Assembly: GCA_944470555.2 (NCBI GenBank)
Contig: OX104127.1
Location: 98,418,708 to 98,482,707 of the forward strand
DNA length: 64,000 nucleotides
Direction of reading: 5' to 3'
DNA from: Heterobilharzia americana
Taxonomy: Eukaryota; Platyhelminthes; Trematoda; Strigeidida; Schistosomatidae
Shown here: one piece after another, positions 3,140-62,941 of the stretch
Position numbering within the stretch: position 1 is the stretch's first letter
Layout: the number at the start of each line of letters is the position of its first letter
Made by a program: the position numbers and the translations under genes
Notes under the pieces: model-generated
What the model was told of the DNA's origin: nothing
What the model saw: only the letters and a program-made list of their open reading frames with translations
The model's database searches: none

Positions 3140-3154
3140 ATGCGTGAAGTTAAC
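3140..3154 (+). CDS. Exon 1 coding part: start of signal peptide (MREVN)
   Basis: ATG followed by four codons, then the donor AAC|gtgagt. Unspliced, the frame hits TGA within nine codons, so a splice is required. Two upstream in-frame ATGs (3062, 3098) exist. I chose 3140 because it places an Arg-containing n-region directly before the hydrophobic core in exon 2 and fits the TATA-like box. Use of an upstream ATG would give an N-terminal extension and a signal-anchor-like protein. Confidence 0.5.
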
Positions 3155-3206
3155 GTGAGTGGTATTTGATTCGATTTGTTCACTGTGTATTTCATCTTTC
3201 CACTAG
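3155..3206 (+). other. 52-nt intron splitting the signal peptide
   Basis: Starts gtgagt and ends ttcatctttccactag. It is very short compared with the kilobase introns downstream. Very short 5' introns are known in schistosome genes. Confidence 0.55.
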
Positions 3207-3267
3207 GCCTTCCTGTACACTGCGGTTCTGATGTGTTTTTATTTATCTACCGTGTACAGTCAAACAG
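3207..3267 (+). CDS. Exon 2: hydrophobic core and cleavage region of signal peptide
   Basis: 61 nt, entering in phase 0 and leaving in phase 1, donor CAG|gtgagt, acceptor with a strong pyrimidine tract. It encodes AFLYTAVLMCFYL, a 13-residue hydrophobic core, followed by STVYS-QT, a good signal-peptidase site with small residues at -3 and -1. With MREVN from exon 1 this is a textbook signal peptide of about 23 residues, so the mature protein would start QT(G/E). Being the only exon with asymmetric phase, it sets the phase-1 rule for all that follow. Confidence 0.7.
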
Positions 3268-6200
3268 GTGAGTTATTCAAATAAATCAAACTTGTTTAGT
3301 ATACGATTTTACATCTCATAGAGTTGATTTTATCACAAGCTTCATTGGTTAGTTCAACAACATCTAAGTGATATGCCTAAATAAAATGTAACGGAAAGAA
3401 GTTGATTTGTTATTCAGATGTAGATTTGATGTGTGGAATACACCTTATACTGGATATCATTTAGTGATTTTGTATGGTTTTGATTTCTTTGTATTTAACA
3501 TCATATCCTAAGTCTATCTTATGAATTTCTGGCCGACTCGAACTTAAGGGAACTGTATACAAATCTTTTTGATGAAAAAAGAAAGCTGGGATACTTAGGG
3601 CGGACTGAATCCTACTAGATCTTTCGAGAGGTAAACCATCATTTTGACTGATTACATTTAAGACAACATGACATTCACACATGAAGACTTTCATCAACCG
3701 ATCAGTATTTAACGGTGAGGTTATGATAAGTATTTACGACCTGTTGTGCTATTCCTAGATCACTTGGAATGCCTAAGCATGAGTTATAGTTCTTGTCACG
3801 TTCTCTTATTGAAATTAGCATATAAATGTATACATTTATTTATTAGGATATGACTGAGAAAGATTTAACTCGAAGATATTTAGGCTGTATAATAATAGCT
3901 CAAAAACTACGGCGACAATGGAAAAGAGTGAAAAATTACTTCAGTGATACTTTTTGTTGTAAATGGTCTGTATGACATTAATCTACAGGCTCCCAACTAA
4001 TGCAGGTAGACGCATATCTCATACAACTTGAAATCATTAGATGGATGTTCACCTGACACTATACAGTTAGCAACTGCCTATAAGTGGGATGCCAATAAGA
4101 AAGCATCATGGCAGGGAATTCAAAAAACTATGATATGTAGAAACCCCTCCGAAAGAAATGAGTTAATCGATTGAAATTTCCGATATTTTCATGGAAAGAT
4201 GTCACTGACCCGTCACTACTTCGGCTTAGGTACTCAACGGGAAATTTGCAGATATTTTTCGAGTTTTGGTACTGAATAAGTGAATCAGATTACTTTAAAG
4301 TGAACTTAAACCTGAGGATTCTATTTTGATTATACTGACTTGCTGTATATCTTTCGTGATTTTGTTTTATTACTACTTTAAGAATGGGTCAATTAGTATG
4401 GCTTTCTGATACAAACGTCTTGTTCACCCACCAAATAAAAACTTTAAGAAAAACAACTTATGCTCAGAACTGACTAGTATTTTCAGTAACTCATGCATAT
4501 CAAACATTAAAATAAACAAGGACATGATCTGTCTTTGTTTGTATTACAACCAACCAAAAAAACAGTAAAAGGCCTTCAGCGAAGTCATTACCAATTTAAT
4601 ATTCCCTACCTTTTGGTTTGTTTGATTTACGACACTAGCCAACTATAACTATCTGATTAACACCCTTCATCCAATGAATTGATTGGGGCAGCGAATAAGT
4701 CAATTTTGAAGTAATATGGAAGGCTGGTGTGTGGTTTTCGGTGATCAAAAAAAAATCATAGTGAGAAGAACCATTGTAGTTCATTATCTAATTTCTTTTT
4801 TTAAGTAAACCAAGTATATGTTTTCAGACTAACTCGAATTATTTTCTCAGAACCACACTGTAGGTTTTCTTGAGTCCCCTTCATATGCGATTTTATGAGG
4901 ATTTCCATATCATACGAAATCTGACTTCAACAGTTAAACATACTAAAGAAATCAGTGGAAAATATACAGCATGAGAGTTATTGCATCTACGTAACAATAT
5001 CCTTTAAGCAGTAATCAAAAGTGGACTAGATTAATCTGATTTCACTTTGTGATTGAATAATGAATAACATTTTTCATAATCTTTGTTCATAAATGTAGAT
5101 CCCAAACCATATAAGTTTATTAATTTTGTCCCATTATGCAAAGAAATTTGATGCATTACATTTCAATAGATAAGGTTGGAATAAAGTGTTGAATAGTTTG
5201 AAAAAAGGTCTAGAATTGGGTATATGATATTTATTATTTTGGCTATTTTATTTCTCAATGAATGTAGAACTAAACAAATTTGTTTTAACCATCGTTTCAC
5301 TACTTATTGTTAGTAGCTTTACCAAAGGTATAGTTATACCACTTTGATAAAACTATTAGCATCAACTAGCAAAACTCCAGTTGAAACAAATTTAATTTGT
5401 CCTAAATTTGTTGGGAAATACAAATATCATAACAATAAAGCGTTAAATATTCACACTGATATTGATGCAGACAAAATCGCTCATTGTTTCTCAAATAGCT
5501 ACTAGAGCTTCAATTCGAATGTAGTGTGCGGCTACGTGACTGACTCATCAGTCACTAGCCATTTTGTATTCTAGCCAGTTTTGACTTCTGAAAGTGGCTA
5601 TCGAAATGGGTAGCGTAATAAGTGCATCACGAAAATAGTTCGTATTCTGATGGAGTTATTTTAAGAACTGCAAGTGCGTATGCAAAAATGTCAGTTGTGC
5701 CTCAGATTTACCTAGATATGTGTGAAATTGATCATCTCGAAGTTAATTTTTAATGAAATTTCTGAATCAGTTTGCATTCAGTTAATTCCGTCTGCAAAAG
5801 AATGAAGTAGAAACTTTGAACTCCTTAATGTTTGAGATAGAGAAAAGGCTTTAAATACTTTTCTTTCTTTTAGTGTGTAGCGAAAAAGAGCCACTGAAGA
5901 CTTTAGTAAATAAATCTGTTAATTGAAAACAACTCAGTGACACACATTATAGTCACTGAACTTTTTAGTTTCTGAAGGATTTAATGCTTCATCAAAGTTC
6001 ATGCTCTAAACAAAACATAGACCTTAGTAAATGATAGTGCGTAGTCAGAATGAACTTTTTAACCAGAATACAGTTTGAAGTCCACTGGTTTGCTTTAATA
6101 CAGACTGAGTAGTTTGTGTACAAATGAGTCCCTAGATTCAACAAACCAATGGGATGCCTGCTAGCAGAACAATGATGAAATTGAAATGATGACTTGGAAC

Positions 6201-8271
6201 CTGATTAAGCTTAGTATCGTAATATAAATTCAACTCTTCTTAGAGAATGATGGATAAGAATAACTTACAAGGAAAGTAGAAGTTGGACATACAAGTGAGT
6301 TATGGCCTGATCTAACTGCAAGATACGTGATAAATCTAAGCTCTTAAAGTACTTCTGTGAACTGAAGGAATTCAGCGGAAACGTGAACCCAGCATATGGC
6401 ACCAAACTGAACGTATGAAATAACTGATTACGTCTGTTCCTCCTAATTTAGGAACGTACTACTTTGATTTCTGTTACACCTGTAGAGCAGTTGCAGAATT
6501 ATTTGCTAGTAGTCCTTTGATTATAAGTTAGTTAGCTGGTATCGCATGGTAACTTTGAATAAAAAGTAATCAGTAGTCTAGAGAATTTAACGAAGCTTTA
6601 AATTAGGATGGCTCAGGAAGATGGTTTAAAAACTAGAAAAAGAGAAGACTACTCGTTAAAAGTGAATATTGTCAGGAAACTCTAGTGTGATAATCAGCAA
6701 TGATAAAACGATGTCCAAAGGAATATTTTTTTTGATTGTAAAACTATGAACCAGTTATTAGTTGTTTTATCGAAGATTCTGACCTATAATTATTTCGTGA
6801 TCTTTTATATACAGTACCACATCAAGCATTCTTTTCTAGAGTGGAAAGACTAATTTGACAAATTTCTTTAGAAAGACCTGTGATTTCAGCTGCCGTTTTC
6901 TCGAAAAAGTTTTCTTCGGTAATTATCCCCTAAGCCTTTGTTACTGCCAGGTTTTTAATTCACGCTGTGGATAACTGTTTACTTTCATTTCGCCTTGCTT
7001 ATTGTTCAACTTGCATTAAACAAAAAGTACATTCATTTCACAAGAATTATATAAACGAAGCGATCAAAAGCAGATGTAAATAACAAAAATTGTATAAAGG
7101 ATCGCTTCTCTACAAAAATCCGTCGACTGGTGAGATCCTTGATCGAAAAATTCATTATTAATTACAGTAAATGAATAACATCTTGAAGAACATGTACTTT
7201 TTAAACTGATCTTTGAAGACCACGTCGAAACGTTGTTATGTTCTGAGTAACTAGATATGTCATTTTTACTAAAACTGTTGAATAAACAAATACAGAGGCG
7301 TTTTATGCCGCCGATTTAATGAGTTATGGATAAACATCTTTTTGTACTTTGACTATCAAACGCCGTTATCTAGTGACTCTGATACCATTGGGTTATTGTG
7401 CCTAATAAGAATTTTTAAACGAATTTCAAATGCAAAACTTTTTGTTCCTATGTTGTTAGCTTCGAGGAATTAATATTTTACATCGAAATCGCTGGTGAAT
7501 GCTGTAAAAGAGTGAGGAATAAGTTAGTTGGAAAGTGGTCGTAAATTAAACGTTTACTGATGCTGTCTAGAATTTCGTATTTATTTGAAAGCCTAGTCAT
7601 CCTATCAATCAGCATTTGAGGTGTAAAGCGTTAAGTATTTCGACGCCTACTTAAGTAACTGATATTTTTACTTATATACATTCTTTTCTATTACTTAGTA
7701 TAGTCTTAATTGTGAGCGTTGTGAACTGTAGTGTTCTGGCATTTTCAATGTCACTTACTACCAACAGTCAAAAAACCTAGCTGTATTTAGAATCCGTGTA
7801 AATGTACTTCAAACTTATTATGGGAAAGTCTACTAATGATTCATAAGAAGGTTGTAGTTAGTGTGACTGATATTCAGGCTCAAGAACTCACCCAATGAAA
7901 AACTTTACAGGCTAAAAGTTTTTGTGGACACAACTAGAAGGGATAACCAAATCTGTCAAATACTATAGAATAACAGACAGGTTAACAACATACGTCCAGG
8001 CCAGCCACGATGGAATGTAAAAATACAGTAGTGTCAGTGGTTCATCTTACCCATACATATAAAGAACGCCTAGTACTAAGAAGCAAAATGAATCACTAAA
8101 CTCCTTGGAAGACAATTTTTGAAAGGGTTTTGTGAATATACGATCAAGAGTCATACTGCTTGGGTGGGAGTGACTGATAATAGCAAATGAATCATTTCCT
8201 AGGTTGAAAATTTTTATTTTAGCACCTCTGGTCATTCTGAACATTATTTGCATATTGTTATTTATTTGCAG
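3268..8271 (+). other. Intron, 5.0 kb, nothing recognised inside
   Basis: AT-rich, without an ORF above 78 codons, mobile-element motif or tandem repeat that I could identify. One pseudo-exon (6244-6294) was examined and rejected. Confidence 0.5.
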
Positions 8272-8316
8272 AGACATTTGAAAAACCTAAAGATACACCT
8301 TTACAACAAAAAGACA
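8272..8316 (+). CDS. Micro-exon 3, 45 nt
   Basis: Acceptor ttgttatttatttgcag, donor ACA|gtaagt. In phase 1 it reads TFEKPKDTPLQQKD and joins exon 2 through a GAG (Glu) codon. Phase 2 contains a stop; phase 0 is open too. The peptide is polar and Lys-rich, right behind the predicted cleavage site. Confidence 0.72.
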
Positions 8317-11001: not shown

Positions 11002-11049
11002 ATTCAACAGTGAATCCAGTGAATGTGGCAGCCTCTCTGACAAACAGCA
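11002..11049 (+). CDS. Micro-exon 4, 48 nt
   Basis: Strong acceptor (gtatttgtgtttattgacag), donor GCA|gtgagt. Phase 1 reads STVNPVNVAASLTNS. The junction codon with exon 3 is AAT (Asn), creating an N-S-T glycosylation sequon across the splice. Phase 0 has a stop; phase 2 is open. Ser/Thr/Asn-rich, as expected for a secreted glycoprotein. Confidence 0.75.
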
Positions 11050-11815: not shown

Positions 11816-11827
11816 GTCAGCGATCAG
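11816..11827 (+). CDS. Micro-exon 5, 12 nt
   Basis: GTCAGCGATCAG between a good acceptor (ttttctctaaattttcag) and a perfect donor (gtgagt). It adds Ser at the junction plus QRS. Too short for frame evidence; the call rests on both splice sites being strong, the length being a multiple of three, and the position in the series. Confidence 0.5.
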
Positions 11828-14800
11828 GTGAGTCTCGTTTACGAATATTCTTAAATTGACACTTGGTTATTATCGGTGAACGCGATGCATACTGAGTTGG
11901 GTGGTATTTTTACGCATGTGAAGCAAACTGGCGACCTTGGACAGATGAGTGAGTACTAAAGGGCATGAGCGTGTGTTCACGTTGTAGATAAATGTAGTAT
12001 CAATATATGCTGATGTACGGTAGGTTGTGGCGACAGAGGGTGCAATTGAATTCTCAGTTGTGATTCACTGGTGGAACTGGTAACGGACAGTGCCATATAC
12101 TTGATGACACCACAAGAACCACAGTATCTGATGACACCAAGGTGACTGTCTTGGTTAGCAAGGATATTGAATCAGTTGTGTATATCAATCATACTGACAC
12201 GCATCAAAACGAGTCAACTTCAGTATCACACTCCTGACAGTATTTCGAGTTTCCGTGGTTTCCTGGTTTTGTTTGATGGCTGACGACTGCCACAACCACC
12301 ACTTTTGCAGCTAGCTGCTGACAGCATCATGAATCCAATATGTGTGAATGGGTTTGATGAAGGTAGCTTTTGTTGAGCGTGACTGATGTGTCAGGTGAAT
12401 GTTTCTGTGAGAAGAAATTAGTTCCTCTGTCACTGTTCTTCATTTGCAGTCGCTCCGAATTTCAGAGTGATAAATACGACCCAATCCAACGCTAATTGAT
12501 TTAAGATGATCCATTGCAATTCTAAAATATATGTTCATTACATAAATGTATTTCTGTCTGTGGTTCTACATTTTATCGTTTGGTTTGGCATTTTGTTAGG
12601 TGTGATGTTTTTCCACTCTGCTTTGTGCTTTTGTTTGTCCTGCTGTTTTTGGAGTTTTCTCTTTTTTTCTTATTTCTCTTGGTTCCCACTCTGCTTCTTA
12701 TCTTTTCACTTTCCGCTTCCTTGAAGTTAGCAATGTCATTTTGATTTTGACTTTCGTCCACTATTTCTCTTTGCCTCACACTTCCTGTTCTTCTGTATCC
12801 TACACTTGAAATGTTCCTGTTGAAACTTTGCTTTATTTAAGCTGATGGCCCATTTGGTAAATATGTTCGCTATTTTATCACTCAGACATTTTTAGGATGG
12901 TTTCTGTTTAACTAATCTACTGTTTTCTATTTTGATGATTTTTCTTTTTCATGGCTCTTGGTTGCTCGCATCAGTTGCTAGTTGTCCCTTGTTTTGATGA
13001 ATTTCTAATCGGTTGATCACATTTTTGCGAGTGTACTGTTCGGTTTTCGCATCGAATTCGCTGGTTGATAGATACTTATGTCTCTTAGTGAACACTGGTT
13101 ACGTAGTAACTGAACTGACACTTCGGTGATGAATACTGGCAATTTAGAATTCAAAGCACTACGGTTCTTGTCGATTCAGTGCTGAGATATATTATTAATA
13201 GGCGATTTTCCGTAGCATCGCTTCATTCATCCTAGCGACCGGGATGCAGATTTACAAGTTAAGTTTCCGTTTGTATTCAGCTCACAAGACATACACAGCA
13301 GGGTCCACAACAAGCCAGTGACTGATTTGTCGTTCATGGTCTACATTGACGACGAATGTTTATTTTACAGCTCACGTATGGAATTACTGTTTTGTTCATC
13401 ATGACAAGATTAGCAGTGATTTTCAGTCATGAGCAGTAGTTGCGAGATTCTAAACAATAGTTTACAATCTTCCTTTTTGGACTGCGGAAGGATCATTTGT
13501 ATGTTCAGAGATAAATACCTAAACTCTGAATAGCATAAAATATGCTTCACATAGAACTTCTTTAATTGTATGTGGACGATTAAAATGCGAACTAAGGAAC
13601 ATAATTCCGGCTGATATGTATCTACCTCTAATCAATAGGATGCTGAATGTGATTTAATTTCATTCCCCTACTTATAGATTCAAATGTAGGACGCAGGGTA
13701 ACAGGACCAATGGCCTATCGAAATCGTGAGTTCAGGTGGAATAATCTTGATAACGTCTTTTTTGTTGATACAATATCAAGTTGGTACTGATGGAGATTTG
13801 CAGTTTGAATTATTGAGATTTCCTCACGAAAAGTATAATATACATCTACTTTGCATAGCCCTATCATGTCTCATTGATTGAAATCAATTCACCCGTATAA
13901 ACTTTCCAGTTGAAATAAGGAATTGTTTTAAAGTTTACAGTAAACATTTGGTACTGTTAAATCCCCCAGTTATTTTATTCGTATGGGTAGAACAGATCAT
14001 AAAACATTGGTCATACTTTTCGAAGTACAGTTTACAGATATGCCATTGTTAGTTGATAAACTGAGGAATACAGTGTCTTGGAATGCTGCTAAATAAGAAG
14101 ATTACTGTCTTCGGAATAGACATTTTCGACATTGTATCTAGGTTGTAGGCTTTACTGAAAGGAACTTAATCCAGACATACAATCGAATCGATGCAAAATA
14201 TATTGACGGCTTGTGAAGTGGATATTTCATGTAATAAGCAACATTTACAAAGATCAGAAGGCGACAACCTACTTTTGTCAATTCACTGTGAACATTTGAT
14301 TTGGTTAAAGATGGTCAAAAAATGTCATTTAAGAAAACTTCTGAGTAAATAATCTAAACAGAACAGTCTGTTACATATAACGGACTTGCGGAGCTATCGG
14401 CAATTTACTAAGCAAGCCCATGCTAAGCATCTCAACAAGTAATGTGATATTATTTTTCGACTATGATAGAGTTTTATGTTTTGAATGATGTCATAGTTGT
14501 AATTCTTTGATTTATGTGAATCTTAGTCAACATCCGTCACGGTGGTTTCATAGATATTCGGCGTCAAGTGAAAACGTGACATTAGATATGTTATATTTGA
14601 ACAAATCTCAACGTGTTTGAGGTAAGAAATTGCAACCTTCAGCATGGAAGTCTTGCCCGAGTTTATCCAGGGAAAAAATTAAGATTTACATTATCGTGTA
14701 TTTATGTACCAGGTCACAAACTGTATAGCTTCTGTCACTGTCTTGTCATGCTTGGATTATAATTGATTTTCAATGAGCCTATTAGTTGTTTTTTGACGCC

Positions 14801-15880: not shown

Positions 15881-15928
15881 GTTCAAAACTCAGAACTGCG
15901 AACACAACAGGAGTGACGTCTATGAAAC
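15881..15928 (+). CDS. Micro-exon 6, 48 nt
   Basis: Acceptor gtttgctttctacag, donor AAC|gtgagt. Phase 1 reads SKLRTANTTGVTSMK with an N-T-T sequon. Phase 0 is closed by TGA. The junction codon with exon 5 is GGT (Gly). Confidence 0.72.
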
Positions 15929-16761
15929 GTGAGTTATAGATAACAACATTTGTACCGAAAGGACTTTGAAACCTGTTTTTTTCGGTTAGGCTGTCGGCAG
16001 AAAGCACATTTATGGGGAAATAATCGAAAATGCCTCTTCACTCATGCATATCTGTATACCAAACATAACTGTGTGGCGCAAAATATCTTAAATGATCAAA
16101 TGTGTTTGATGAGGAGGAGAAAAATGAGGTGGATGCAGATTATCCTTCTGATAACATATATGCCTGTGGTAGGTATTAGGCAGCTTGCCTAAACTCTGGG
16201 CAACAAGAAATTCTCCATCGAATACATGACATCAAATTCCTTCTTCTTAAAATCTGTTTCAACTTGTTAAATATGTCTCTTAAGCGCATCATGTACTCTT
16301 GCACAATTTTGAAATGATTTGAAACTACCGTTTTTCCAGCTAACAACAAAGCAAAGAAAAAACGATATGCCTGTAAGAGATGGGATTATAGAGGCACAGA
16401 AACACAGTTCTTCACCATTCCTTGGATAACTATGTCGAACTACATATTTTGGTACTGACTCAATCAACTACCACCATCAAAATGACACTCAATTTTCTAC
16501 TCATTCACAAGTGCAAACAAGACACTAATGTAATATCAGGTGCCTGTTTCTCACTGTGGTTTATATCACTGTTATTATTGACATTATTCAAATGCAGTGA
16601 TTATTTCGCTTAAAGATGTTGTGGAGGGAATGAATTTGTTGAAGTATTACATGCTGAGAATTCCATACTGTACCACACGTATTGATTGAAATAAAGCCGT
16701 TATTGTTACTATTACTGATATTATTACAAACATGAAGTGAAATTTATGCTAAGACGATAAC

Positions 16762-20125: not shown

Positions 20126-20152
20126 CGACCAACAGGTTCTATAAAGACAAAG
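20126..20152 (+). CDS. Micro-exon 7, 27 nt
   Basis: Acceptor tttgttatcttgcag, donor AAAG|gtgaga. Phase 1 reads TNRFYKDK, joined to exon 6 by CCG (Pro). Phase 0 is also open (RPTGSIKTK); phase 2 has a stop. It lies only 111 nt from the 5' end of the retrotransposon. A possible companion exon at 20216-20234 does not fit the phase. Confidence 0.62.
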
Positions 20153-21805: not shown

Positions 21806-21844
21806 CGAAAGTCAGAAATGCAACCCTGAATAGACAGAAACGAC
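21806..21844 (+). CDS. Micro-exon 8, 39 nt
   Basis: Acceptor ctgtttagttttcatag, donor CGAC|gtaagt. Only phase 1 is free of stops: KVRNATLNRQKR, with an N-A-T sequon and a basic end (RQKR). Junction codon GCG (Ala). The basic run resembles a proprotein-convertase site, an inference only. Confidence 0.75.
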
Positions 21845-23162: not shown

Positions 23163-23189
23163 GTTCTAAATCTGCAGGCTCCACAATCT
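23163..23189 (+). CDS. Micro-exon 9, 27 nt
   Basis: Acceptor attgttgatttgtacag, donor TCT|gtaagt. Phase 1 reads SKSAGSTI; phase 2 has a stop. The junction codon with exon 8 is CGT (Arg). Confidence 0.7.
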
Positions 23190-23767: not shown

Positions 23768-23797
23768 CTAATCACATAGGATTTGTCAGCGATATCC
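23768..23797 (+). CDS. Candidate micro-exon, 30 nt (weak donor)
   Basis: Acceptor cactcatagtcttcag, donor ATCC|gtaact. Open only in phase 1 (NHIGFVSDI). The donor deviates from GTRAGT at one position. May be alternative or spurious. Confidence 0.28.
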
Positions 23798-33353: not shown

Positions 33354-33364
33354 AAAGTCAATGA
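33354..33364. repeat. Imperfect target-site duplication, truncated-end side
   Basis: See 32933-32943. Confidence 0.65.
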
Positions 33365-40804: not shown

Positions 40805-40846
40805 CCTGGGAAGACTTTCAGACAGATCCTGTCATCATAAGACGAG
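40805..40846 (+). CDS. Micro-exon 10, 42 nt
   Basis: Strong acceptor (gcatttttacctttttag), donor CGAG|gtaaga. Phase 1 reads WEDFQTDPVIIRR; phase 0 has a stop. If it follows exon 9 directly, the junction codon is TCC (Ser). The only confident exon with Trp. Confidence 0.78.
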
Positions 40847-42040: not shown

Positions 42041-42240
42041 CAGCCAAAAAATTAGGTCAAGGAGAAGCGATTGTGAATGGTGAGCGAAATAAAAGTTATG
42101 CAGTATAAAGGAGATAGGATAATGCTTTCTTTCAATAACACCACTACGGACCCGAAAAGTCATTCAAAATATTTTTTTCTCGTAATTGCTATATCAATAT
42201 ATTTTCGAACTGCATAAGACTTTATGATGAAGAAATATAA
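42039..42240 (+). repeat. Diverged direct repeat, right copy
   Basis: See 41236-41437. Confidence 0.65.
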
Positions 42241-42858: not shown

Positions 42859-42885
42859 CTTATAAGACAGTGAACAAAAGACTTC
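42859..42885 (+). CDS. Micro-exon 11, 27 nt
   Basis: Acceptor ctcaacttattttgcag, donor CTTC|gtaagt. Only phase 1 is open (YKTVNKRL). Junction codon GCT (Ala). Confidence 0.77.
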
Positions 42886-43769: not shown

Positions 43770-43802
43770 GTTTGCCAGGTGAAAAATCAAATGAAGGTGA
43801 AC
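43770..43802 (+). CDS. Micro-exon 12, 33 nt
   Basis: Acceptor accttgacactgacag after a long pyrimidine-rich stretch, donor GAAC|gtaagt. Phase 1 reads LPGEKSNEGE. The junction codon with exon 11 is CGT (Arg). First of three 33-nt exons in a row, all acidic/basic and hydrophilic. Confidence 0.76.
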
Positions 43803-47780: not shown

Positions 47781-47813
47781 CAGAAAACAAACCGGAAAAG
47801 AAAATAATCAAAT
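47781..47813 (+). CDS. Micro-exon 13, 33 nt
   Basis: Acceptor ttaccattcattcacag, donor AAAT|gtaaga. Phase 1 reads ENKPEKKIIK; phase 0 has a stop. Junction codon CCA (Pro). Lys-rich, like exon 3. Confidence 0.76.
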
Positions 47814-48370: not shown

Positions 48371-50161
48371 ACCTCGCCTGGTTAACTAGTTCACTAGTTA
48401 CTAGCCGGTCCTAAGCCCGGGTAAAGAGGGAAGGTTGTGCATGAGGCTAGCAACCCTACCCCGTAAAACAAATCTAACCGCTAAAGAAACTTCAAAGCAC
48501 AAACAAAATATAAAAAATAAAAACAAAATTGTTCCTCGCTGGAATCGGAGAGACGAAATGACGCCTGTTAGTGAAAGCCTTCAGGAAGCCAATCGGTCAA
48601 TGTGTCATAAAGCTACTGAAATGAGGGAAAGCAGCTGGACCGGATGGGATCCCGCCAGAAGCATTGAGAACAGACGCAGAGATAACAGCGGACATGCTCA
48701 CACCACTATTGCAGAAGGTGTGGAAGGAAGGAAAGGTACCTGGCCACTGATTGGAAGAAAGGCTATCTTGTCAAACTTTCGAAGAAGGGCAACCTAAGTC
48801 TTTGCAAGAACTGGTGCGGAATCACTTTCCTGTCCAACCAATGCAAGCAAAATGTTAAGCTGCATCATCTTGGATGCACTGGATTCAAAACTATGACCGG
48901 AACAGGCTGATTGACTGGATTCAAGAAGTACAAATCATGCGGGGATCAAATTGCAACGCTACACTTAGCATCATCATAGAACAGAGCGTAGAATGGCAGT
49001 CAACTCTACACCTCAACTTTATCGACTTTGAGAAGACCTTTGACAGCGTCGACCGAGATGTAATTTGGAAGCTGCTTCAATACTACGGAATACCACAAAC
49101 CTTTATCAGCCTCATTCAACAACTATATGAAGACGACACATGCCAGCCAAGTAATTCACAGTGGGAGGCTCAGTGATGCTTTCGAAGTGAAGACAGGAGT
49201 GAAACAAGGTTACCGCCTACTATCACCCATGATATTCCTGATTGTGGTCGACTGGACTGGATCATGCAGAAACAGTGAGGAGCGAGAAGAGGGGGATACA
49301 CTGGCTGGACTGCGGAAAAGAACCTAGAAGATCTGGATTTCGCCGATGACTTGTGTCTGATGTCACACAAACTTGAAGATCTACATGCGAGAACTAACAA
49401 GTTAGCAGAAGAGGTAGGGCAGCGAAGACAGGACATCACCCAGGAGAACGTAGAAAAGACAGAGGTGATGAAGATACCCAACCAACAACATCAACAAACT
49501 CTAATCACCATCAGTGGGAGAAACTTAAATGAAGTAGCTTCTTTCATCTCTCTAGGCAGCACTGTTTCAACTACAGGTGGCGGCATAGACGAGGATGTCA
49601 AAGTCAGAATCATAAAAGCGAGACAGGCGTTCATTGGCCTGAAGCCAGTGTGGAGATCTTCTGCACTCAGTATAAAGCATGAACATAATACGAATTTTCA
49701 ACACCAACATCAAGTCAGTGCTTCTGTATGGTTCAAAGGCTTGGCGCGTTACGAAAAGGATTTCCAACAGATTGCAGACATTCATCACAACCTGCTTACG
49801 CTCGCTACTGAAGATCAGATGGCCGAAAGGAACAAGTAACAAGGAACTCTGGAGACGAACCAACCAAGAACCTATCACTGAACAAATATGCACTGTAAGG
49901 AAGCAGAGATGGATTGGACATACGCTGAGAAGGCTGACTCGGGACATCACACGTCAAGCCAGGCCATCGAGTGGAACCCAAAAGGGAAACAACAAGTTGG
50001 GCGTCCGTGGTGATGTTGACATGGAGGAGATCGTGCGAGGAGGAAACGACAGCTTGCCGCCTGTAGTGGAGCCATGTTCAAAAGTTTTCAGAGAACAGAG
50101 CGTGCTACTGAAGCCCTGTGTTTCATTAGGAACCCAAGAGACAAATCATAATAATGATAAT
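48371..50161 (+). mobile_element. RTE-like copy with large internal deletion
   Basis: Shares the exact 5' terminus of the full-length element (ACCTCGCCTGG) and its 3' tail (AATCATAATAATGATAA), and has a 9-bp target duplication. About 1.45 kb is missing at about 48606: sequence matching 19762 of the full-length copy jumps to sequence matching 18306, removing the whole endonuclease and the front of the RT. What remains reads, with frameshifts, through FIDFEKTFDSVD, LDFADDLCLMSH and the C-terminal domain. It cannot move on its own. Both termini are intact, so it was probably full-length when inserted. Confidence 0.85.
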
Positions 50162-50170
50162 CAGCTGCTC
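50162..50170. repeat. Target-site duplication, 3' side
   Basis: See 48361-48369. Confidence 0.75.
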
Positions 50171-51668: not shown

Positions 51669-51701
51669 CTAATGATGAACACGGAAACACTTCCATCAAA
51701 A
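51669..51701 (+). CDS. Micro-exon 14, 33 nt
   Basis: Acceptor ctcttttcatgaattcacag, donor AAAA|gtgagt. Phase 1 reads NDEHGNTSIK with an N-T-S sequon; phase 2 has a stop. It joins exon 13 by TCT (Ser) and leads into the repeat exons by AGC (Ser), the same Ser that links repeat to repeat. Confidence 0.76.
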
Positions 51702-53639: not shown

Positions 53640-54120
53640 GTAAATACAGAGAATATATGGAAAAAAATGAAGAAAACGTCAGCAAAAAAACATTAAAAAA
53701 CACTTAAGGGCAATATATTGTATCCGGAAAGAAAGAGAGCAATATAAAAAACCAAACAAAAAAAGAATATAAGAAAGAGTTGCGAAGAAAAACACACAAA
53801 AGAAGAAGCACGATTGAAACACATAAAACAGAAAACAAAAAATAAAAAAGGAAGAAAATACAGCAAAAAACCAGAAAAAAACGGTCGGAAAAAAGAAATA
53901 AAAATTACAAGATGAGAAAAAAACAGCAAAATAAAAACATAGCAAAAAACTAAGCAGAAAGGGAAGAAAAACAGAGAAGAAAAAGTAAAATAGAAAACAA
54001 AAAAGTGTAAAATGAAATAAAAAAAAGCAAAAAAGCAGAAAAAAAAGGCGAAAAAACACGACAACCAAATACATAATAGCAAAAAAGACTAAATAAAAAA
54101 ACAGCAAAAAAAAACTCTAT
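53640..54120. repeat. A-rich low-complexity block at the array boundary
   Basis: About 480 nt of AAAAA runs broken by G and C (AAGAAAAAC, GCAAAAAAGC patterns). It creates a spurious Phe-rich 142-codon ORF on the - strand. It ends within 20 nt of the first tandem unit. Confidence 0.8.
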
Positions 54121-54876
54121 CCTAAAATCGCAAATAGGAGCGATGAACCCTAACCAGACAGTAAGTCAAAACCTCTGCCCATCCGTACTTGTCGACCCAC
54201 AGATGCAGCCTCAAATTTGAATGAACGATGCACGATATCGAAGTGTCGATTACTTGCGCGAGGTTTCCTCCTTAACTCACGTGCGATATACGGATATGTT
54301 ACACATGTGTTCACTATGCTTCTCATTTCACTGCAACATCTGACACCACTGTGTCCAGTGTCACTTATCCAGCAACTAGCCATTTTAGCAGAACCTCCAC
54401 TTGTCCTCAGCCTAGTGAGATTCTTAACCAGACGAATCCCACACAGCTCTGTTAAGCATCCTGTAAAGCGTTCCTCAGTAGTCGTGTTTCTTCTTCATAA
54501 CCAGTTTGCTCAGGAGTGACTCAATAGTGTTTGTCTGCCGAGTTCGGTTGTCAGTTCTTACTGACAGTTTGGTGGATTTTGCACGCACACTTTCATGTGC
54601 ATTGCGGTTGGACTACTAATCATCGGTATTCAGGTTGTTATGCTCTCTTTTCCGCACTTCGTTGTAGCAGTGATTAGTGGCATGAGGTAGGTATCATCTG
54701 TGCACTTCTGCCTACCAAAGTTACTGTCACACTTCACACTAGTCAACCTGAATGCATTCATCTTCTGCAGATTAGATGTGGCCTCTGTGTACTTTCACCC
54801 ACACTCTGCATGCTATCATGAATCTCAGGTAGACAAGCTGTATCCAGGGGTCTCAACGACTCACGTACAAGCGAGT

Positions 54877-54911
54877 AAGCAAGCAAGCAAGCAAGCACAC
54901 ACACACACACC
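54877..54911. repeat. (AAGC)n(CA)n microsatellite inside unit 1
   Basis: Present in every unit. Unit 1 has an uninterrupted short CA run, units 2-6 have CACACAAACACACA with variable length. This tract accounts for the 1563/1571/1575 length classes. Confidence 0.9.
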
Positions 54912-55018
54912 ATACACAGTGACCGATGTCGATTCACCGTTACTCGTTAACTCACATCACTGACTACTTCAACATACACACTCTCTCATTCTCGTCATGT
55001 TTCCTCCTCTTTCCACAG

Positions 55019-55078
55019 GCACCACTGTGAAGCCCGCCACAACCACAAGCACAACCACCACGAAGAAGGCTGAACCAA
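55019..55078 (+). CDS. Repeat exon R1, 60 nt, mucin-type repeat
   Basis: Acceptor ctcctctttccacag, donor CCAA|gtgagt. Phase 1 reads TTVKPATTTSTTTTKKAEP, plus a Ser (A|GC) at each junction: a 20-residue period with nine Thr, two Ser, two Pro and three Lys. Thr-rich, Pro-containing tandem repeats are the hallmark of O-glycosylated mucin domains. Flanking intron codons in the longer ORF are not expected in the protein, because both splice sites are near consensus and the frame closes 3' of the exon. Confidence 0.85.
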
Positions 55079-56589
55079 GTGAGTTCAATCATGATTTTTG
55101 CCAATTATGCATCATTTGGAGTCAGCACACTAGCATGCTTTTGTCGAGTATTTTCGAGACGAGTAGTCACACCAACGGCTCACATTTTGCCACAGCCAGT
55201 CTACACACCCATGCTAAATATGCACACAGTGTGCATATATTACTCTCACTGAGGTTGTTGGGAGAGATGTGCATGCTGTTCGACTCTATGTGTTCAGTGG
55301 AGTCCAGCCCGTCTATCTTTGCTGAGCCTTTTCCCACGAATAGCATAAGTGCACAAACGGTCCACTCTCTGCATAAAAATCACTGTGAATAGCTCCACGT
55401 GACTACTTCCACAAACACAGCAAGTGTTTGGTTGAGCATTGTGGCAAGCAGACAGACAGACAGACAGGCAGGCAGACGGAAGCATCAAACATGTGCAATC
55501 TGTCCTACATCCTGTATACGGAGTCCACTGCTGTGCTTGCGAACGTGAACACGATCATTTGACGGAGTCCAGTGTAGCCTGATGTGGTCGTCCTTCGTCA
55601 GTCTGTGAGAGAAAACACCAGTGTTCCAGCATCTCTGTCATGTACCAATCAACCTAATCGGCAGTCCAAAACAACCACCGCTTCCCTCACTCGTTTATGT
55701 GAGCGATGAACCCTAACCAGACAGTAAGTCAAAACCTCTACCCATCCGTACTTGTCGACCCACAGATGCAGCCTCAAATTTGAATGAACGATGCACGATA
55801 TCGAAGTGTCGATTACTTGCGCGAGGTTTCCTCCTTAACTCACGTGCGATATACGGATATGTTACACATGTGTTCACTATGCTTCTCATTTCACTGCAAC
55901 ATCTGACACCACTGTGTCCAGTGTCACTTATCCAGCAACTAGCCATTTTAGCAGAACCTCCACTTGTCCTCAGCCTAGTGAGATTCTTAACCAGACGAAT
56001 CCCACACAGCTCTGTTAAGCATCCTGTAAAGCGTTCCTCAGTAGTCGTGTTTCTTCTTCATAACCAGTTTGCTCAGGAGTGACTCAATAGTGTTTGTCTG
56101 CCGAGTTCGGTTGTCAGTTCTTACTGACAGTTTGGTGGATTTTGCACGCACACTTTCATGTGCATTGCGGTTGGACTACTAATCATCGGTATTCAGGTTG
56201 TTATGCTCTCTTTTCCGCACTTCGTTGTAGCAGTGATTAGTGGCATGAGGTAGGTATCATCTGTGCACTTCTGCCTACCAAAGTTACTGTCACACTTCAC
56301 ACTAGTCAACCTGAATGCATTCATCTTCTGCAGATTAGATGTGGCCTCTGTGTACTTTCACCCACACTCTGCATGCTATCATGAATCTCAGGTAGACAAG
56401 CTGTATCCAGGGGTCTCAACGACTCACGTACAAGCGAGTAAGCAAGCAAGCAAGCAAGCACACACAAACACACACACACACCATACACAGTGACCGATGT
56501 CGATTCACCGTTACTCGTTAACTCACATCACTGACTACTTCAACATACACACTCTCTCATTCTCGTCATGTTTCCTCCTCTTTCCACAG

Positions 56590-56649
56590 GCACCACTGTG
56601 AAGCCCGCCACAACCACAAGCACAACCACCACGAAGAAGGCTGAACCAA
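56590..56649 (+). CDS. Repeat exon R2, 60 nt
   Basis: Identical to R1 in sequence and splice sites, 1571 nt downstream. Confidence 0.85.
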
Positions 56650-58160
56650 GTGAGTTCAATCATGATTTTTGCCAATTATGCATCATTTGGAGTCAGCACA
56701 CTAGCATGCTTTTGTCGAGTATTTTCGAGACGAGTAGTCACACCAACGGCTCACATTTTGCCACAGCCAGTCTACACACCCATGCTAAATATGCACACAG
56801 TGTGCATATATTACTCTCACTGAGGTTGTTGGGAGAGATGTGCATGCTGTTCGACTCTATGTGTTCAGTGGAGTCCAGCCCGTCTATCTTTGCTGAGCCT
56901 TTTCCCACGAATAGCATAAGTGCACAAACGGTCCACTCTCTGCATAAAAATCACTGTGAATAGCTCCACGTGACTACTTCCACAAACACAGCAAGTGTTT
57001 GGTTGAGCATTGTGGCAAGCAGACAGACAGACAGACAGGCAGGCAGACGGAAGCATCAAACATGTGCAATCTGTCCTACATCCTGTATACGGAGTCCACT
57101 GCTGTGCTTGCGAACGTGAACACGATCATTTGACGGAGTCCAGTGTAGCCTGATGTGGTCGTCCTTCGTCAGTCTGTGAGAGAAAACACCAGTGTTCCAG
57201 CATCTCTGTCATGTACCAATCAACCTAATCGGCAGTCCAAAACAACCACCGCTTCCCTCACTCGTTTATGTGAGCGATGAACCCTAACCAGACAGTAAGT
57301 CAAAACCTCTGCCCATCCGTACTTGTCGACCCACAGATGCAGCCTCAAATTTGAATGAACGATGCACGATATCGAAGTGTCGATTACTTGCGCGAGGTTT
57401 CCTCCTTAACTCACGTGCGATATACGGATATGTTACACATGTGTTCACTATGCTTCTCATTTCACTGCAACATCTGACACCACTGTGTCCAGTGTCACTT
57501 ATCCAGCAACTAGCCATTTTAGCAGAACCTCCACTTGTCCTCAGCCTAGTGAGATTCTTAACCAGACGAATCCCACACAGCTCTGTTAAGCATCCTGTAA
57601 AGCGTTCCTCAGTAGTCGTGTTTCTTCTTCATAACCAGTTTGCTCAGGAGTGACTCAATAGTGTTTGTCTGCCGAGTTCGGTTGTCAGTTCTTACTGACA
57701 GTTTGGTGGATTTTGCACGCACACTTTCATGTGCATTGCGGTTGGACTACTAATCATCGGTATTCAGGTTGTTATGCTCTCTTTTCCGCACTTCGTTGTA
57801 GCAGTGATTAGTGGCATGAGGTAGGTATCATCTGTGCACTTCTGCCTACCAAAGTTACTGTCACACTTCACACTAGTCAACCTGAATGCATTCATCTTCT
57901 GCAGATTAGATGTGGCCTCTGTGTACTTTCACCCACACTCTGCATGCTATCATGAATCTCAGGTAGACAAGCTGTATCCAGGGGTCTCAACGACTCACGT
58001 ACAAGCGAGTAAGCAAGCAAGCAAGCAAGCACACACAAACACACACACACACCATACACAGTGACCGATGTCGATTCACCGTTACTCGTTAACTCACATC
58101 ACTGACTACTTCAACATACACACTCTCTCATTCTCGTCATGTTTCCTCCTCTTTCCACAG

Positions 58161-58220
58161 GCACCACTGTGAAGCCCGCCACAACCACAAGCACAACCAC
58201 CACGAAGAAGGCTGAACCAA
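58161..58220 (+). CDS. Repeat exon R3, 60 nt
   Basis: Identical to R1, 1571 nt after R2. Confidence 0.85.
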
Positions 58221-59735
58221 GTGAGTTCAATCATGATTTTTGCCAATTATGCATCATTTGGAGTCAGCACACTAGCATGCTTTTGTCGAGTATTTTCGAG
58301 ACGAGTAGTCACACCAACGGCTCACATTTTGCCACAGCCAGTCTACACACCCATGCTAAATATGCACACAGTGTGCATATATTACTCTCACTGAGGTTGT
58401 TGGGAGAGATGTGCATGCTGTTCGACTCTATGTGTTCAGTGGAGTCCAGCCCGTCTATCTTTGCTGAGCCTTTTCCCACGAATAGCATAAGTGCACAAAC
58501 GGTCCACTCTCTGCATAAAAATCACTGTGAATAGCTCCACGTGACTACTTCCACAAACACAGCAAGTGTTTGGTTGAGCATTGTGGCAAGCAGACAGACA
58601 GACAGACAGGCAGGCAGACGGAAGCATCAAACATGTGCAATCTGTCCTACATCCTGTATACGGAGTCCACTGCTGTGCTTGCGAACGTGAACACGATCAT
58701 TTGACGGAGTCCAGTGTAGCCTGATGTGGTCGTCCTTCGTCAGTCTGTGAGAGAAAACACCAGTGTTCCAGCATCTCTGTCATGTACCAATCAACCTAAT
58801 CGGCAGTCCAAAACAACCACCGCTTCCCTCACTCGTTTATGTGAGCGATGAACCCTAACCAGACAGTAAGTCAAAACCTCTGCCCATCCGTACTTGTCGA
58901 CCCACAGATGCAGCCTCAAATTTGAATGAACGATGCACGATATCGAAGTGTCGATTACTTGCGCGAGGTTTCCTCCTTAACTCACGTGCGATATACGGAT
59001 ATGTTACACATGTGTTCACTATGCTTCTCATTTCACTGCAACATCTGACACCACTGTGTCCAGTGTCACTTATCCAGCAACTAGCCATTTTAGCAGAACC
59101 TCCACTTGTCCTCAGCCTAGTGAGATTCTTAACCAGACGAATCCCACACAGCTCTGTTAAGCATCCTGTAAAGCGTTCCTCAGTAGTCGTGTTTCTTCTT
59201 CATAACCAGTTTGCTCAGGAGTGACTCAATAGTGTTTGTCTGCCGAGTTCGGTTGTCAGTTCTTACTGACAGTTTGGTGGATTTTGCACGCACACTTTCA
59301 TGTGCATTGCGGTTGGACTACTAATCATCGGTATTCAGGTTGTTATGCTCTCTTTTCCGCACTTCGTTGTAGCAGTGATTAGTGGCATGAGGTAGGTATC
59401 ATCTGTGCACTTCTGCCTACCAAAGTTACTGTCACACTTCACACTAGTCAACCTGAATGCATTCATCTTCTGCAGATTAGATGTGGCCTCTGTGTACTTT
59501 CACCCACACTCTGCATGCTATCATGAATCTCAGGTAGACAAGCTGTATCCAGGGGTCTCAACGACTCACGTACAAGCGAGTAAGCAAGCAAGCAAGCAAG
59601 CACACACAAACACACACACACACACACCATACACAGTGACCGATGTCGATTCACCGTTACTCGTTAACTCACATCACTGACTACTTCAACATACACACTC
59701 TCTCATTCTCGTCATGTTTCCTCCTCTTTCCACAG

Positions 59736-59795
59736 GCACCACTGTGAAGCCCGCCACAACCACAAGCACAACCACCACGAAGAAGGCTGAACCAA
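59736..59795 (+). CDS. Repeat exon R4, 60 nt
   Basis: Identical to R1, 1575 nt after R3 owing to a longer CA tract in the intron. Confidence 0.85.
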
Positions 59796-61310
59796 GTGAG
59801 TTCAATCATGATTTTTGCCAATTATGCATCATTTGGAGTCAGCACACTAGCATGCTTTTGTCGAGTATTTTCGAGACGAGTAGTCACACCAACGGCTCAC
59901 ATTTTGCCACAGCCAGTCTACACACCCATGCTAAATATGCACACAGTGTGCATATATTACTCTCACTGAGGTTGTTGGGAGAGATGTGCATGCTGTTCGA
60001 CTCTATGTGTTCAGTGGAGTCCAGTCCGTCTATCTTTGCTGAGCCTTTTCCCACGAATAGCATAAGTGCACAAACGGTCCACTCTCTGCATAAAAATCAC
60101 TGTGAATAGCTCCACGTGACTACTTCCACAAACACAGCAAGTGTTTGGTTGAGCATTGTGGCAAGCAGACAGACAGACAGACAGGCAGGCAGACGGAAGC
60201 ATCAAACATGTGCAATCTGTCCTACATCCTGTATACGGAGTCCACTGCTGTGCTTGCGAACGTGAACACGATCATTTGACGGAGTCCAGTGTAGCCTGAT
60301 GTGGTCGTCCTTCGTCAGTCTGTGAGAGAAAACACCAGTGTTCCAGCATCTCTGTCATGTACCAATCAACCTAATCGGCAGTCCAAAACAACCACCGCTT
60401 CCCTCACTCGTTTATGTGAGCGATGAACCCTAACCAGACAGTAAGTCAAAACCTCTGCCCATCCGTACTTGTCGACCCACAGATGCAGCCTCAAATTTGA
60501 ATGAACGATGCACGATATCGAAGTGTCGATTACTTGCGCGAGGTTTCCTCCTTAACTCACGTGCGATATACGGATATGTTACACATGTGTTCACTATGCT
60601 TCTCATTTCACTGCAACATCTGACACCACTGTGTCCAGTGTCACTTATCCAGCAACTAGCCATTTTAGCAGAACCTCCACTTGTCCTCAGCCTAGTGAGA
60701 TTCTTAACCAGACGAATCCCACACAGCTCTGTTAAGCATCCTGTAAAGCGTTCCTCAGTAGTCGTGTTTCTTCTTCATAACCAGTTTGCTCAGGAGTGAC
60801 TCAATAGTGTTTGTCTGCCGAGTTCGGTTGTCAGTTCTTACTGACAGTTTGGTGGATTTTGCACGCACACTTTCATGTGCATTGCGGTTGGACTACTAAT
60901 CATCGGTATTCAGGTTGTTATGCTCTCTTTTCCGCACTTCGTTGTAGCAGTGATTAGTGGCATGAGGTAGGTATCATCTGTGCACTTCTGCCTACCAAAG
61001 TTACTGTCACACTTCACACTAGTCAACCTGAATGCATTCATCTTCTGCAGATTAGATGTGGCCTCTGTGTACTTTCACCCACACTCTGCATGCTATCATG
61101 AATCTCAGGTAGACAAGCTGTATCCAGGGGTCTCAACGACTCACGTACAAGCGAGTAAGCAAGCAAGCAAGCAAGCACACACAAACACACACACACACAC
61201 ACCATACACAGTGACCGATGTCGATTCACCGTTACTCGTTAACTCACATCACTGACTACTTCAACATACACACTCTCTCATTCTCGTCATGTTTCCTCCT
61301 CTTTCCACAG

Positions 61311-61370
61311 GCACCACTGTGAAGCCCGCCACAACCACAAGCACAACCACCACGAAGAAGGCTGAACCAA
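61311..61370 (+). CDS. Repeat exon R5, 60 nt
   Basis: Identical to R1, 1575 nt after R4. Confidence 0.85.
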
Positions 61371-62881
61371 GTGAGTTCAATCATGATTTTTGCCAATTAT
61401 GCATCATTTGGAGTCAGCACACTAGCATGCTTTTGTCGAGTATTTTCGAGACGAGTAGTCACACCAACGGCTCACATTTTGCCACAGCCAGTCTACACAC
61501 CCATGCTAAATATGCACACAGTGTGCATATATTACTCTCACTGAGGTTGTTGGGAGAGATGTGCATGCTGTTCGACTCTATGTGTTCAGTGGAGTCCAGC
61601 CCGTCTATCTTTGCTGAGCCTTTTCCCACGAATAGCATAAGTGCACAAACGGTCCACTCTCTGCATAAAAATCACTGTGAATAGCTCCACGTGACTACTT
61701 CCACAAACACAGCAAGTGTTTGGTTGAGCATTGTGGCAAGCAGACAGACAGACAGACAGGCAGGCAGACGGAAGCATCAAACATGTGCAATCTGTCCTAC
61801 ATCCTGTATACGGAGTCCACTGCTGTGCTTGCGAACGTGAACACGATCATTTGACGGAGTCCAGTGTAGCCTGATGTGGTCGTCCTTCGTCAGTCTGTGA
61901 GAGAAAACACCAGTGTTCCAGCATCTCTGTCATGTACCAATCAACCTAATCGGCAGTCCAAAACAACCACCGCTTCCCTCACTCGTTTATGTGAGCGATG
62001 AACCCTAACCAGACAGTAAGTCAAAACCTCTGCCCATCCGTACTAGTCGACCCACAGATGCAGCCTCAAATTTGAATGAACGATGCACGATATCGAAGTG
62101 TCGATTACTTGCGCGAGGTTTCCTCCTTAACTCACGTGCGATATACGGATATGTTACACATGTGTTCACTATGCTTCTCATTTCACTGCAACATCTGACA
62201 CCACTGTGTCCAGTGTCACTTATCCAGCAACTAGCCATTTTAGCAGAACCTCCACTTGTCCTCAGCCTAGTGAGATTCTTAACCAGACGAATCCCACACA
62301 GCTCTGTTAAGCATCCTGTAAAGCGTTCCTCAGTAGTCGTGTTTCTTCTTCATAACCAGTTTGCTCAGGAGTGACTCAATAGTGTTTGTCTGCCGAGTTC
62401 GGTTGTCAGTTCTTACTGACAGTTTGGTGGATTTTGCACGCACACTTTCATGTGCATTGCGGTTGGACTACTAATCATCGGTATTCAGGTTGTTATGCTC
62501 TCTTTTCCGCACTTCGTTGTAGCAGTGATTAGTGGCATGAGGTAGGTATCATCTGTGCACTTCTGCCTACCAAAGTTACTGTCACACTTCACACTAGTCA
62601 ACCTGAATGCATTCATCTTCTGCAGATTAGATGTGGCCTCTGTGTACTTTCACCCACACTCTGCATGCTATCATGAATCTCAGGTAGACAAGCTGTATCC
62701 AGGGGTCTCAACGACTCACGTACAAGCGAGTAAGCAAGCAAGCAAGCAAGCACACACAAACACACACACACACCATACACAGTGACCGATGTCGATTCAC
62801 CGTTACTCGTTAACTCACATCACTGACTACTTCAACATACACACTCTCTCATTCTCGTCATGTTTCCTCCTCTTTCCACAG

Positions 62882-62941
62882 GCACCACTGTGAAGCCCGC
62901 CACAACCACAAGCACAACCACCACGAAGAAGGCTGAACCAA
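62882..62941 (+). CDS. Repeat exon R6, 60 nt (last one inside the window)
   Basis: Identical to R1, 1571 nt after R5. The next repeat exon is expected near 64453, outside the window. Confidence 0.85.

What the first reader, a model, noticed from the sequence alone, without database searches (positions are those of the whole stretch)
3140..62941. A hidden 60-kb micro-exon gene: one signal peptide and at least 18 symmetric exons in a single phase
Seen: 13 distinct internal exon types (12, 27, 33, 39, 42, 45, 48 and 60 nt), all multiples of three, all phase 1-1, nearly all with GTRAGT-like donors and pyrimidine-rich acceptors, following a convincing signal peptide. For micro-exons 8 and 11 phase 1 is the only open frame. 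Known: schistosome micro-exon genes encode secreted proteins in just this way. Inferred: any subset of exons can be spliced together in frame, so one locus could yield very many secreted variants. Caveat: after the first few exons I searched for phase-1 exons, so the match is partly by selection.
Basis: partly seen in the sequence, partly recalled or inferred. Interest (0 to 1): 0.92.

Follow-up and report, generated by a model that had tools for sequence, protein, structure and literature searches.

The report
Fluke micro-exon gene with amplified mucin exon
A blood-fluke chromosome segment very probably holds one long gene cut into many tiny interchangeable exons that encodes a secreted, sugar-ready protein, with one threonine-rich exon copied at least six times; this is a design already known from schistosomes, here in a gene for which no relative was found.

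Summary
On the + strand, a candidate signal-peptide exon pair (3140-3267) is followed by 14 single micro-exons of 12-48 nt (8272-51701). A 60-nt exon then appears six times in near-identical 1.57-kb tandem units that run off the window. All internal exons are multiples of three and phase 1-1. The excess is real: 25 symmetric, phase-1-open segments on + against 5 on -, and 0 of 450 Markov controls reach 25. A frame-blind ranking by splice score agrees for its top 24, weakly at 32. The peptides are hydrophilic and none of 120 ordered exon joins makes a stop. Individual exons remain predictions: three of 14 score weakly, and no RNA was available. The host is a schistosomatid; the LINE is closest to Trichobilharzia regenti (80% identity).

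It missed the closest precedents for the repeated exon: MEG-4.1/Ag10.3 (tandem 81-base exons) and SmPoMuc (27-bp exon in ~1-kb repeats). 'Any subset of exons' is allowed by frame, not shown to occur. Family is open: no homologue found, and the 3' end lies outside the window. A new member of a known kind.

The parts
3089..3095 (+). TATA-like motif TATAAAG, starting 51 nt before the start codon
   Evidence: sequence; function inferred
3140..3154 (+). Exon 1, MREVN, ends in phase 0; donor GTGAGT. An in-frame ATG lies upstream at 3098
3207..3267 (+). Exon 2, 61 nt, signal-peptide core, ends in phase 1; donor GTGAGT
8272..8316 (+). Micro-exon 45 nt, TFEKPKDTPLQQKD
11002..11049 (+). Micro-exon 48 nt, STVNPVNVAASLTNS
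11816..11827 (+). Micro-exon 12 nt, QRS, CAG acceptor and GTGAGT donor
13678..13725 (+). Micro-exon 48 nt, SNVGRRVTGPMAYRN
15881..15928 (+). Micro-exon 48 nt, SKLRTANTTGVTSMK
16340..16372 (+). Micro-exon 33 nt, NNKAKKKRYA
20126..20152 (+). Micro-exon 27 nt, TNRFYKDK, just past a LINE
21806..21844 (+). Micro-exon 39 nt, KVRNATLNRQKR, phase 1 only; an alternative acceptor (exon start 21797) is also symmetric
23163..23189 (+). Micro-exon 27 nt, SKSAGSTI (weak score)
40805..40846 (+). Micro-exon 42 nt, WEDFQTDPVIIRR
42859..42885 (+). Micro-exon 27 nt, YKTVNKRL, phase 1 only (weak score)
43770..43802 (+). Micro-exon 33 nt, LPGEKSNEGE
47781..47813 (+). Micro-exon 33 nt, ENKPEKKIIK (weak score)
51669..51701 (+). 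Micro-exon 33 nt, NDEHGNTSIK
54138..64000 (+). Tandem array of 1563-1575 bp units, 6 full and a 7th cut by the window end; 0-3 substitutions between pairs of full units; length differs at an AC microsatellite
55019..55078 (+). 60-nt exon copy 1, TTVKPATTTSTTTTKKAEP plus junction S, phase 1 only
56590..56649 (+). 60-nt exon copy 2, identical
58161..58220 (+). 60-nt exon copy 3, identical
59736..59795 (+). 60-nt exon copy 4, identical
61311..61370 (+). 60-nt exon copy 5, identical
62882..62941 (+). 60-nt exon copy 6, identical

Best explanation
This is the 5' part of a schistosomatid micro-exon gene, probably from an avian schistosome (Trichobilharzia or a near relative). Predicted: a short first exon and a signal-peptide exon send the product to secretion. 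A run of at least 14 tiny symmetric phase 1-1 exons then encodes a very basic, cysteine-free, hydrophilic stretch with six N-glycosylation sequons. A 60-nt exon carried on a recently amplified 1.57-kb DNA unit adds a tandem mucin-like stretch (11 of 20 residues Ser/Thr). Because every internal exon starts and ends in the same phase and no order-preserving junction makes a stop, skipping any exon, or changing the number of array units, keeps the reading frame. The protein can therefore vary by alternative splicing and by exon copy number. Inferred function: a secreted, heavily glycosylated, disordered protein acting at the host-facing surface (oesophageal or other glands, or tegument), like MEG-4.1 or MEG-14. 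Seen directly: exon anatomy, phase, array. Inferred: transcription, splicing, secretion, glycosylation, function.
For: Symmetric phase-1 excess on one strand only. Peptide composition without hand selection: 21 distinct + strand donors against a mean of 6.8 and a maximum of 17 in 150 controls; GRAVY -1.01 against 0.01 (sd 0.47); hydrophobic fraction 0.23 against 0.43 (sd 0.08). The 14 single internal exons are 17.8% T against 34-38% in their flanks. No stop in 120 ordered joins. The exon of the array unit is unlikely by chance: 6 of 1500 simulated units had an equally strong symmetric phase-1 segment. Predicted mature product pI 10.45, no Cys. The host lineage is right: the two best LINE hits are T. 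regenti, and MEG transcripts are reported in T. regenti and T. szidati (PMC6362228, passages).
Against: No RNA evidence. No homologue among about 5.8 billion proteins for a 231-aa or a 104-aa query, and none in Pfam or PDB for the 211-aa version. Three accepted exons (23163, 42859, 47781) drop out of a splice-score chain; 11 of that chain's 23 segments are not in my model and three of them lie inside LINE copies. In that chain test the phase-1 peptides (GRAVY -0.51) are no more hydrophilic than the phase-2 ones on the same strand (-0.52), and phase 0 also scores well above the other strand. The 17.6-kb gap 23190-40804 has no firm exon. The signal peptide is only modestly unusual. Part of the exon choice was conditioned on phase 1.
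Confidence: 0.8

Rival explanations
1. Two unrelated things: a real MEG in the first ~50 kb, and a separate satellite-like tandem array whose 60-nt 'exon' is fortuitous or belongs to another gene.
For: The array is GC-rich (45-47% in 2-kb steps from 54 kb on, against 31-38% in most earlier steps), near-identical between units, carries AC and GCAA microsatellites, begins abruptly after an A-rich tract, and a unit finds no match in the window's first 54 kb. No transcript joins it to the upstream exons.
Against: The 60-nt exon has among the best splice scores in the window, is symmetric, open in phase 1 only, encodes a Ser/Thr/Pro/Lys mucin-like unit and joins the upstream exons in phase. Equal strength occurs in 6 of 1500 simulated units. 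SmPoMuc has the same arrangement of a small exon in ~1-kb tandem repeats (PMC2576457, section 20).
Confidence: 0.15
2. A decayed or silent MEG copy (pseudogene) invaded by LINEs.
For: Two LINE copies and several LINE fragments lie in the introns; a 17.6-kb intron; no homologue or annotated protein found.
Against: All 15 exon types keep open phase-1 frames and intact GT/AG sites (partly by selection), and none overlaps the five repeat intervals that I listed. TE enrichment near MEGs is reported for S. mansoni (PMC4350168, passages).
Confidence: 0.08
3. No gene at all: chance symmetric segments picked by eye.
Against: 0 of 450 Markov controls reach the + strand count; the frame-blind ranking agrees; composition is shifted; the other strand is at or below background.
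Confidence: 0.04

Closest known systems
MEG-4.1 / antigen 10.3 of Schistosoma mansoni and S. japonicum
   Same: Signal peptide, then a hydrophilic region of Thr/Pro-rich repeats with many predicted O-glycosylation sites (PMC3723592, passages). In S. [quoted passage not shown] MEG-4 orthologues are reported in T. regenti (PMC5825161, passages).
   Different: Unit is 60 nt/20 aa, not 81 nt, and the repeat peptide looks different by eye. Here six N-glycosylation sequons precede the repeats, whereas none were predicted in Sm/SjMEG-4.1. The conserved hydrophobic C-terminal motif would lie beyond the window and could not be tested.
SmPoMuc polymorphic mucins of S. mansoni
   Same: A single small exon sits on a long, nearly identical genomic unit repeated in tandem (27-bp exon, ~1-kb unit, over 93% identity, microsatellites, up to ~20 units), signal peptide, many small exons, intronic hammerhead (PMC2576457, passages, section 18 part 1 and section 20).
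   Different: Repeated exon is 60 nt in a 1.57-kb unit, and follows at least 14 micro-exons, whereas in SmPoMuc it is exon 2. Introns are mostly kilobases, not ~550 bp on average.
MEG-14
   Same: Signal peptide and repeated central region with many predicted O-glycosylation sites (PMC3723592, passages).
   Different: Has a predicted C-terminal membrane anchor; cannot be tested here.
MEG-1 (Smp_122630) of S. mansoni
   Same: MEG with many isoforms (18 in PMC4015677, passages; 14 in PMC10526429, section 5).
   Different: No sequence link could be tested.

Membership tests
Schistosome micro-exon genes (MEGs) | Most of the coding region in very small symmetric exons | tested here: met
   15 internal exon types, 12-60 nt, all multiples of 3, phase 1-1, above chance; prediction, not cDNA, and only for the part inside the window
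Schistosome micro-exon genes (MEGs) | Signal peptide / secreted product | tested here: inconclusive
   12-residue core with mean hydropathy 2.01 and V-Y-S before a plausible cleavage site, but 266 of 4830 (5.5%) random open 20-aa segments are as hydrophobic; no SignalP available
Schistosome micro-exon genes (MEGs) | Long introns between micro-exons | tested here: met
   411 to 17,615 bp between internal exon types; the longest exceeds the ~5 kb given for S. mansoni
Schistosome micro-exon genes (MEGs) | Alternative splicing by exon skipping in transcripts | not testable with these tools
   No RNA; only frame compatibility shown
Schistosome micro-exon genes (MEGs) | Sequence similarity to a numbered MEG family | tested here: inconclusive
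   No hit for 231-aa and 104-aa queries; the search needs shared exact 5-residue words and similar length
MEG-4 | Conserved hydrophobic C-terminal motif | not testable with these tools
   3' end of the gene is outside the window; the genome search could not be reached
MEG-4 | Thr/Pro-rich repeats from tandemly repeated exons (MEG-4.1) | tested here: met
   60-nt exon x6, 11/20 Ser/Thr, 2 Pro; a likeness of architecture, not of sequence
SmPoMuc | 27-bp repeat exon (r1, r1', r2) as exon 2 | tested here: not met
   60-nt exon after at least 14 other internal exons
SmPoMuc | Repeat exon on a ~1-kb near-identical tandem genomic unit with microsatellite | tested here: met
   1563-1575 bp units, 0-3 substitutions, length change at AC microsatellite; unit is longer than in SmPoMuc

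The most novel reading that the evidence does not exclude
One avian-schistosome gene combines two diversification devices that the papers seen here describe in separate genes: MEG-style combinatorial skipping of at least 14 single cassette micro-exons, and SmPoMuc-style copy-number amplification of a mucin exon on a long homogenised DNA unit. Individual worms would then differ both in isoform repertoire and in mucin length.
Probability: 0.35. Interest if true: 0.6.

Novelty: new member of a known kind. Interest (0 to 1): 0.42.

Why it matters
MEGs and polymorphic mucins are candidates for how schistosomes vary what they show to their hosts, yet they are hard to annotate because the exons are tiny and the arrays are hard to assemble. 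A locus with a clear array, an intact phase-1 exon train and no matching annotated product found here gives a concrete case for testing whether exon copy number and cassette splicing vary between individuals. If the host is Trichobilharzia, it also extends the repeated-exon design to a bird-infecting lineage in a gene not matched to a named family.

Tried and rejected
Homology: a 231-aa predicted product gave 430 word-sharing candidates, none at E <= 10; a 104-aa N-terminal piece gave no candidate. Pfam (E <= 0.1) and PDB (E <= 1) gave nothing for the 211-aa product. Only proteins of 0.55-1.75 times the query length are examined, so longer or shorter products could be missed. Six peptide words from the prediction occur in none of the 5.39 million papers searched.

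A phase-aware chain of best-scoring exons gave phase 1 on + the highest score (69.6; 60 controls: mean 20.0, max 40.6). Phase 0 on + scored 53.6 and phase 2 34.6, because many exons are open in two frames; the - strand scored 8.5-14.6. Only 12 of the chain's 23 segments are in my model, three of the other 11 lie inside LINE copies, and its phase-1 peptides are no more hydrophilic than its phase-2 ones, so I did not use the chain as the gene model. Strong candidates left out: 31891-31923 (perfect donor, weak AAG acceptor), 38054-38086 (open in phase 0 only), 6244-6294 (stops in all frames), 54373-54414 (a possible second exon in each array unit, weak). tRNA search: none. The tandem-repeat finder misses the array because its longest period is 500.
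Full report
WHAT THE WINDOW IS. The window is schistosomatid DNA. An antisense non-LTR retrotransposon at 16796-19964 carries endonuclease and reverse-transcriptase domains. Queried as 17299-19964, its two best protein relatives are Trichobilharzia regenti (80% and 76% identity), while the Schistosoma proteins among the 120 listed of 661 hits reach 51-52%. A type I hammerhead ribozyme match, just above Rfam's cut-off (34.2 against 34), lies at 36950-36996 on +. The species itself is not established; Trichobilharzia or a near relative is most likely.

THE OBSERVATION. E1 3140-3154 and E2 3207-3267 join in phase 0 to MREVNAFLYTAVLMCFYLSTVYSQT. E2 ends in phase 1, and from there every exon of the model is symmetric and phase 1-1: 8272-8316, 11002-11049, 11816-11827, 13678-13725, 15881-15928, 16340-16372, 20126-20152, 21806-21844, 23163-23189, 40805-40846, 42859-42885, 43770-43802, 47781-47813, 51669-51701, and the 60-nt exon six times between 55019 and 62941. 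Donors are GTGAGT (6), GTAAGT (5), GTAAGA (3) or GTGAGA (1) over the 15 types; acceptors are CAG (12) or TAG (3).

IS IT MORE THAN CHANCE? With a fixed consensus over 3001-55500, the + strand has 73 segments, 36 of length divisible by three and 25 of those open in phase 1; the - strand has 42, 10 and 5. Of 450 Markov sequences (150 each of order 1, 2 and 3) none reaches 25 (means 8.9, 7.8, 9.7; maxima 24, 15, 22). Other measures in the same call are less extreme: 73 segments are reached by 8, 3 and 22 of 150, and the 7 segments open in phase 1 only by 2, 1 and 6 of 150. Ranking non-overlapping segments by splice score alone, without regard to length or frame, the best 8 on + include 7 symmetric and 6 phase-1-open, against a phase-1 mean of 1.3 and maximum of 4 in 100 controls, and 1 and 0 on -. 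The advantage weakens further down: at 32 segments 11 are phase-1-open, with 1 of 100 controls as high, and the 13 symmetric ones are matched by 22 of 100 controls. This is what one expects if about a dozen real exons are mixed with background.

INDEPENDENT SIGNS. Counting one exon per donor, 21 phase-1 segments on + (controls: mean 6.8, maximum 17 of 150; - strand 3) translate to a set with GRAVY -1.01 and 23% hydrophobic residues, against 0.01 (sd 0.47) and 43% (sd 8%). A looser set of segments does not show this: there the phase-1 peptides (-0.51) are no more hydrophilic than the phase-2 ones (-0.52). The 14 single internal exons contain 17.8% T, their flanks 34-38%. None of the 120 ordered joins between the 16 exons from E2 to the 60-nt exon creates a stop codon, against 266 of 3515 (7.6%) joins between control segments. 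The signal peptide by itself is weak evidence: 266 of 4830 random open 20-residue segments have an equally hydrophobic core.

THE ARRAY. From 54138 the sequence is a tandem array of units of 1563-1575 bp, six complete and a seventh cut by the window's end. Pairs of full units differ by 0-3 substitutions; the length differences lie at an AC microsatellite. Each full unit carries one identical 60-nt exon, open in phase 1 only, encoding TTVKPATTTSTTTTKKAEP plus a junction serine, 11 of 20 residues Ser or Thr. In 1500 simulated units only 6 held a symmetric phase-1 segment with equal splice scores. The near-identity of the units points to recent amplification or homogenisation. It also means the array gives no test of selection on the exon.

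MECHANISM. The predicted mature product, with six repeat copies, is very basic (pI 10.45), cysteine-free and hydrophilic (GRAVY -1.18), with six N-X-S/T sequons before the repeats. The most likely reading is a secreted, disordered, glycosylated protein whose sequence can be varied by skipping cassette exons and whose mucin-like stretch depends on the number of array units. Exon phase, array and stop-free joins are shown; transcription, splicing, secretion, glycosylation and host-interface function are inferred from MEG biology.

AGAINST WHAT IS KNOWN. MEGs are described as genes of many small exons (3-81 bp), mostly multiples of three, with long introns and secreted products, with 35 genes in S. 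mansoni (PMC10526429, abstract and section 5 part 1; symmetric exons also in PMC4350168, passages). A repeated micro-exon is not new. S. mansoni MEG-4.1 (antigen 10.3) has Thr/Pro-rich repeats and a signal peptide and is heavily O-glycosylated (PMC3723592, passages); tandemly repeated exons encoding 81-base repeats are the title of Davis 1988, seen only as a cited title. SmPoMuc genes place a 27-bp exon on ~1-kb near-identical tandem units with microsatellites and have an intronic hammerhead (PMC2576457, passages, section 18 part 1 and section 20). MEG-4 relatives are transcribed in T. regenti (PMC4749378 and PMC5825161, passages), and some Trichobilharzia MEG transcripts are not closely related to known S. 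mansoni MEGs (PMC6362228, passages). The present locus works like both precedents. It fails one defining feature of SmPoMuc (a 27-bp repeat exon as exon 2). For MEG-4 the decisive C-terminal motif lies outside the window. I therefore file it as a MEG by architecture, family unassigned.

NOVELTY AND LIMITS. I saw no earlier description of this gene in the listings and passages from the paper searches made here, which cover open-licence papers only, and found no homologue; but the kind is known. The limits are: no RNA, no neighbouring genome sequence (genome search did not complete), three weakly supported exons (23163, 42859, 47781), and a 17.6-kb gap that may hide more exons.

Noticed in passing
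36950-36996 (+): Type I hammerhead ribozyme match, barely above Rfam's cut-off (34.2 against 34), in the 17.6-kb intron and on the gene's strand; SmPoMuc genes also carry an intronic hammerhead (PMC2576457).
   Followed up: partly
16796-19964 (-): LINE with endonuclease and reverse-transcriptase domains, split over two frames, inserted between micro-exons 16340-16372 and 20126-20152; closest to Trichobilharzia regenti proteins.
   Followed up: partly
48371-50165 (+): A second, more broken copy of the same kind of LINE in the opposite orientation.
   Followed up: no
31691-33203 and 41543-42040: Further fragments related to the 3' part of the LINE.
   Followed up: no
41234-41395 and 42037-42198: A direct repeat pair of 162 nt, 77% alike, flanking a LINE fragment.
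   Followed up: no
53660-54137: A-rich purine tract (64% A, 78% purine) directly before the tandem array; SmPoMuc units are said to be separated by polypurine tracts.
   Followed up: no
54373-54414 and the same place in the other units: A possible second symmetric phase-1 exon (42 nt, TSHFSRTSTCPQP) in the array unit, with weaker splice signals.
   Followed up: no
31891-31923 (+): Symmetric 33-nt segment with a perfect GTGAGT donor but an AAG acceptor; could be a missed exon in the 17.6-kb gap.
   Followed up: no
28972-29388 (+): A 138-aa open frame (stop to stop) inside the 17.6-kb gap, not searched further.
   Followed up: no
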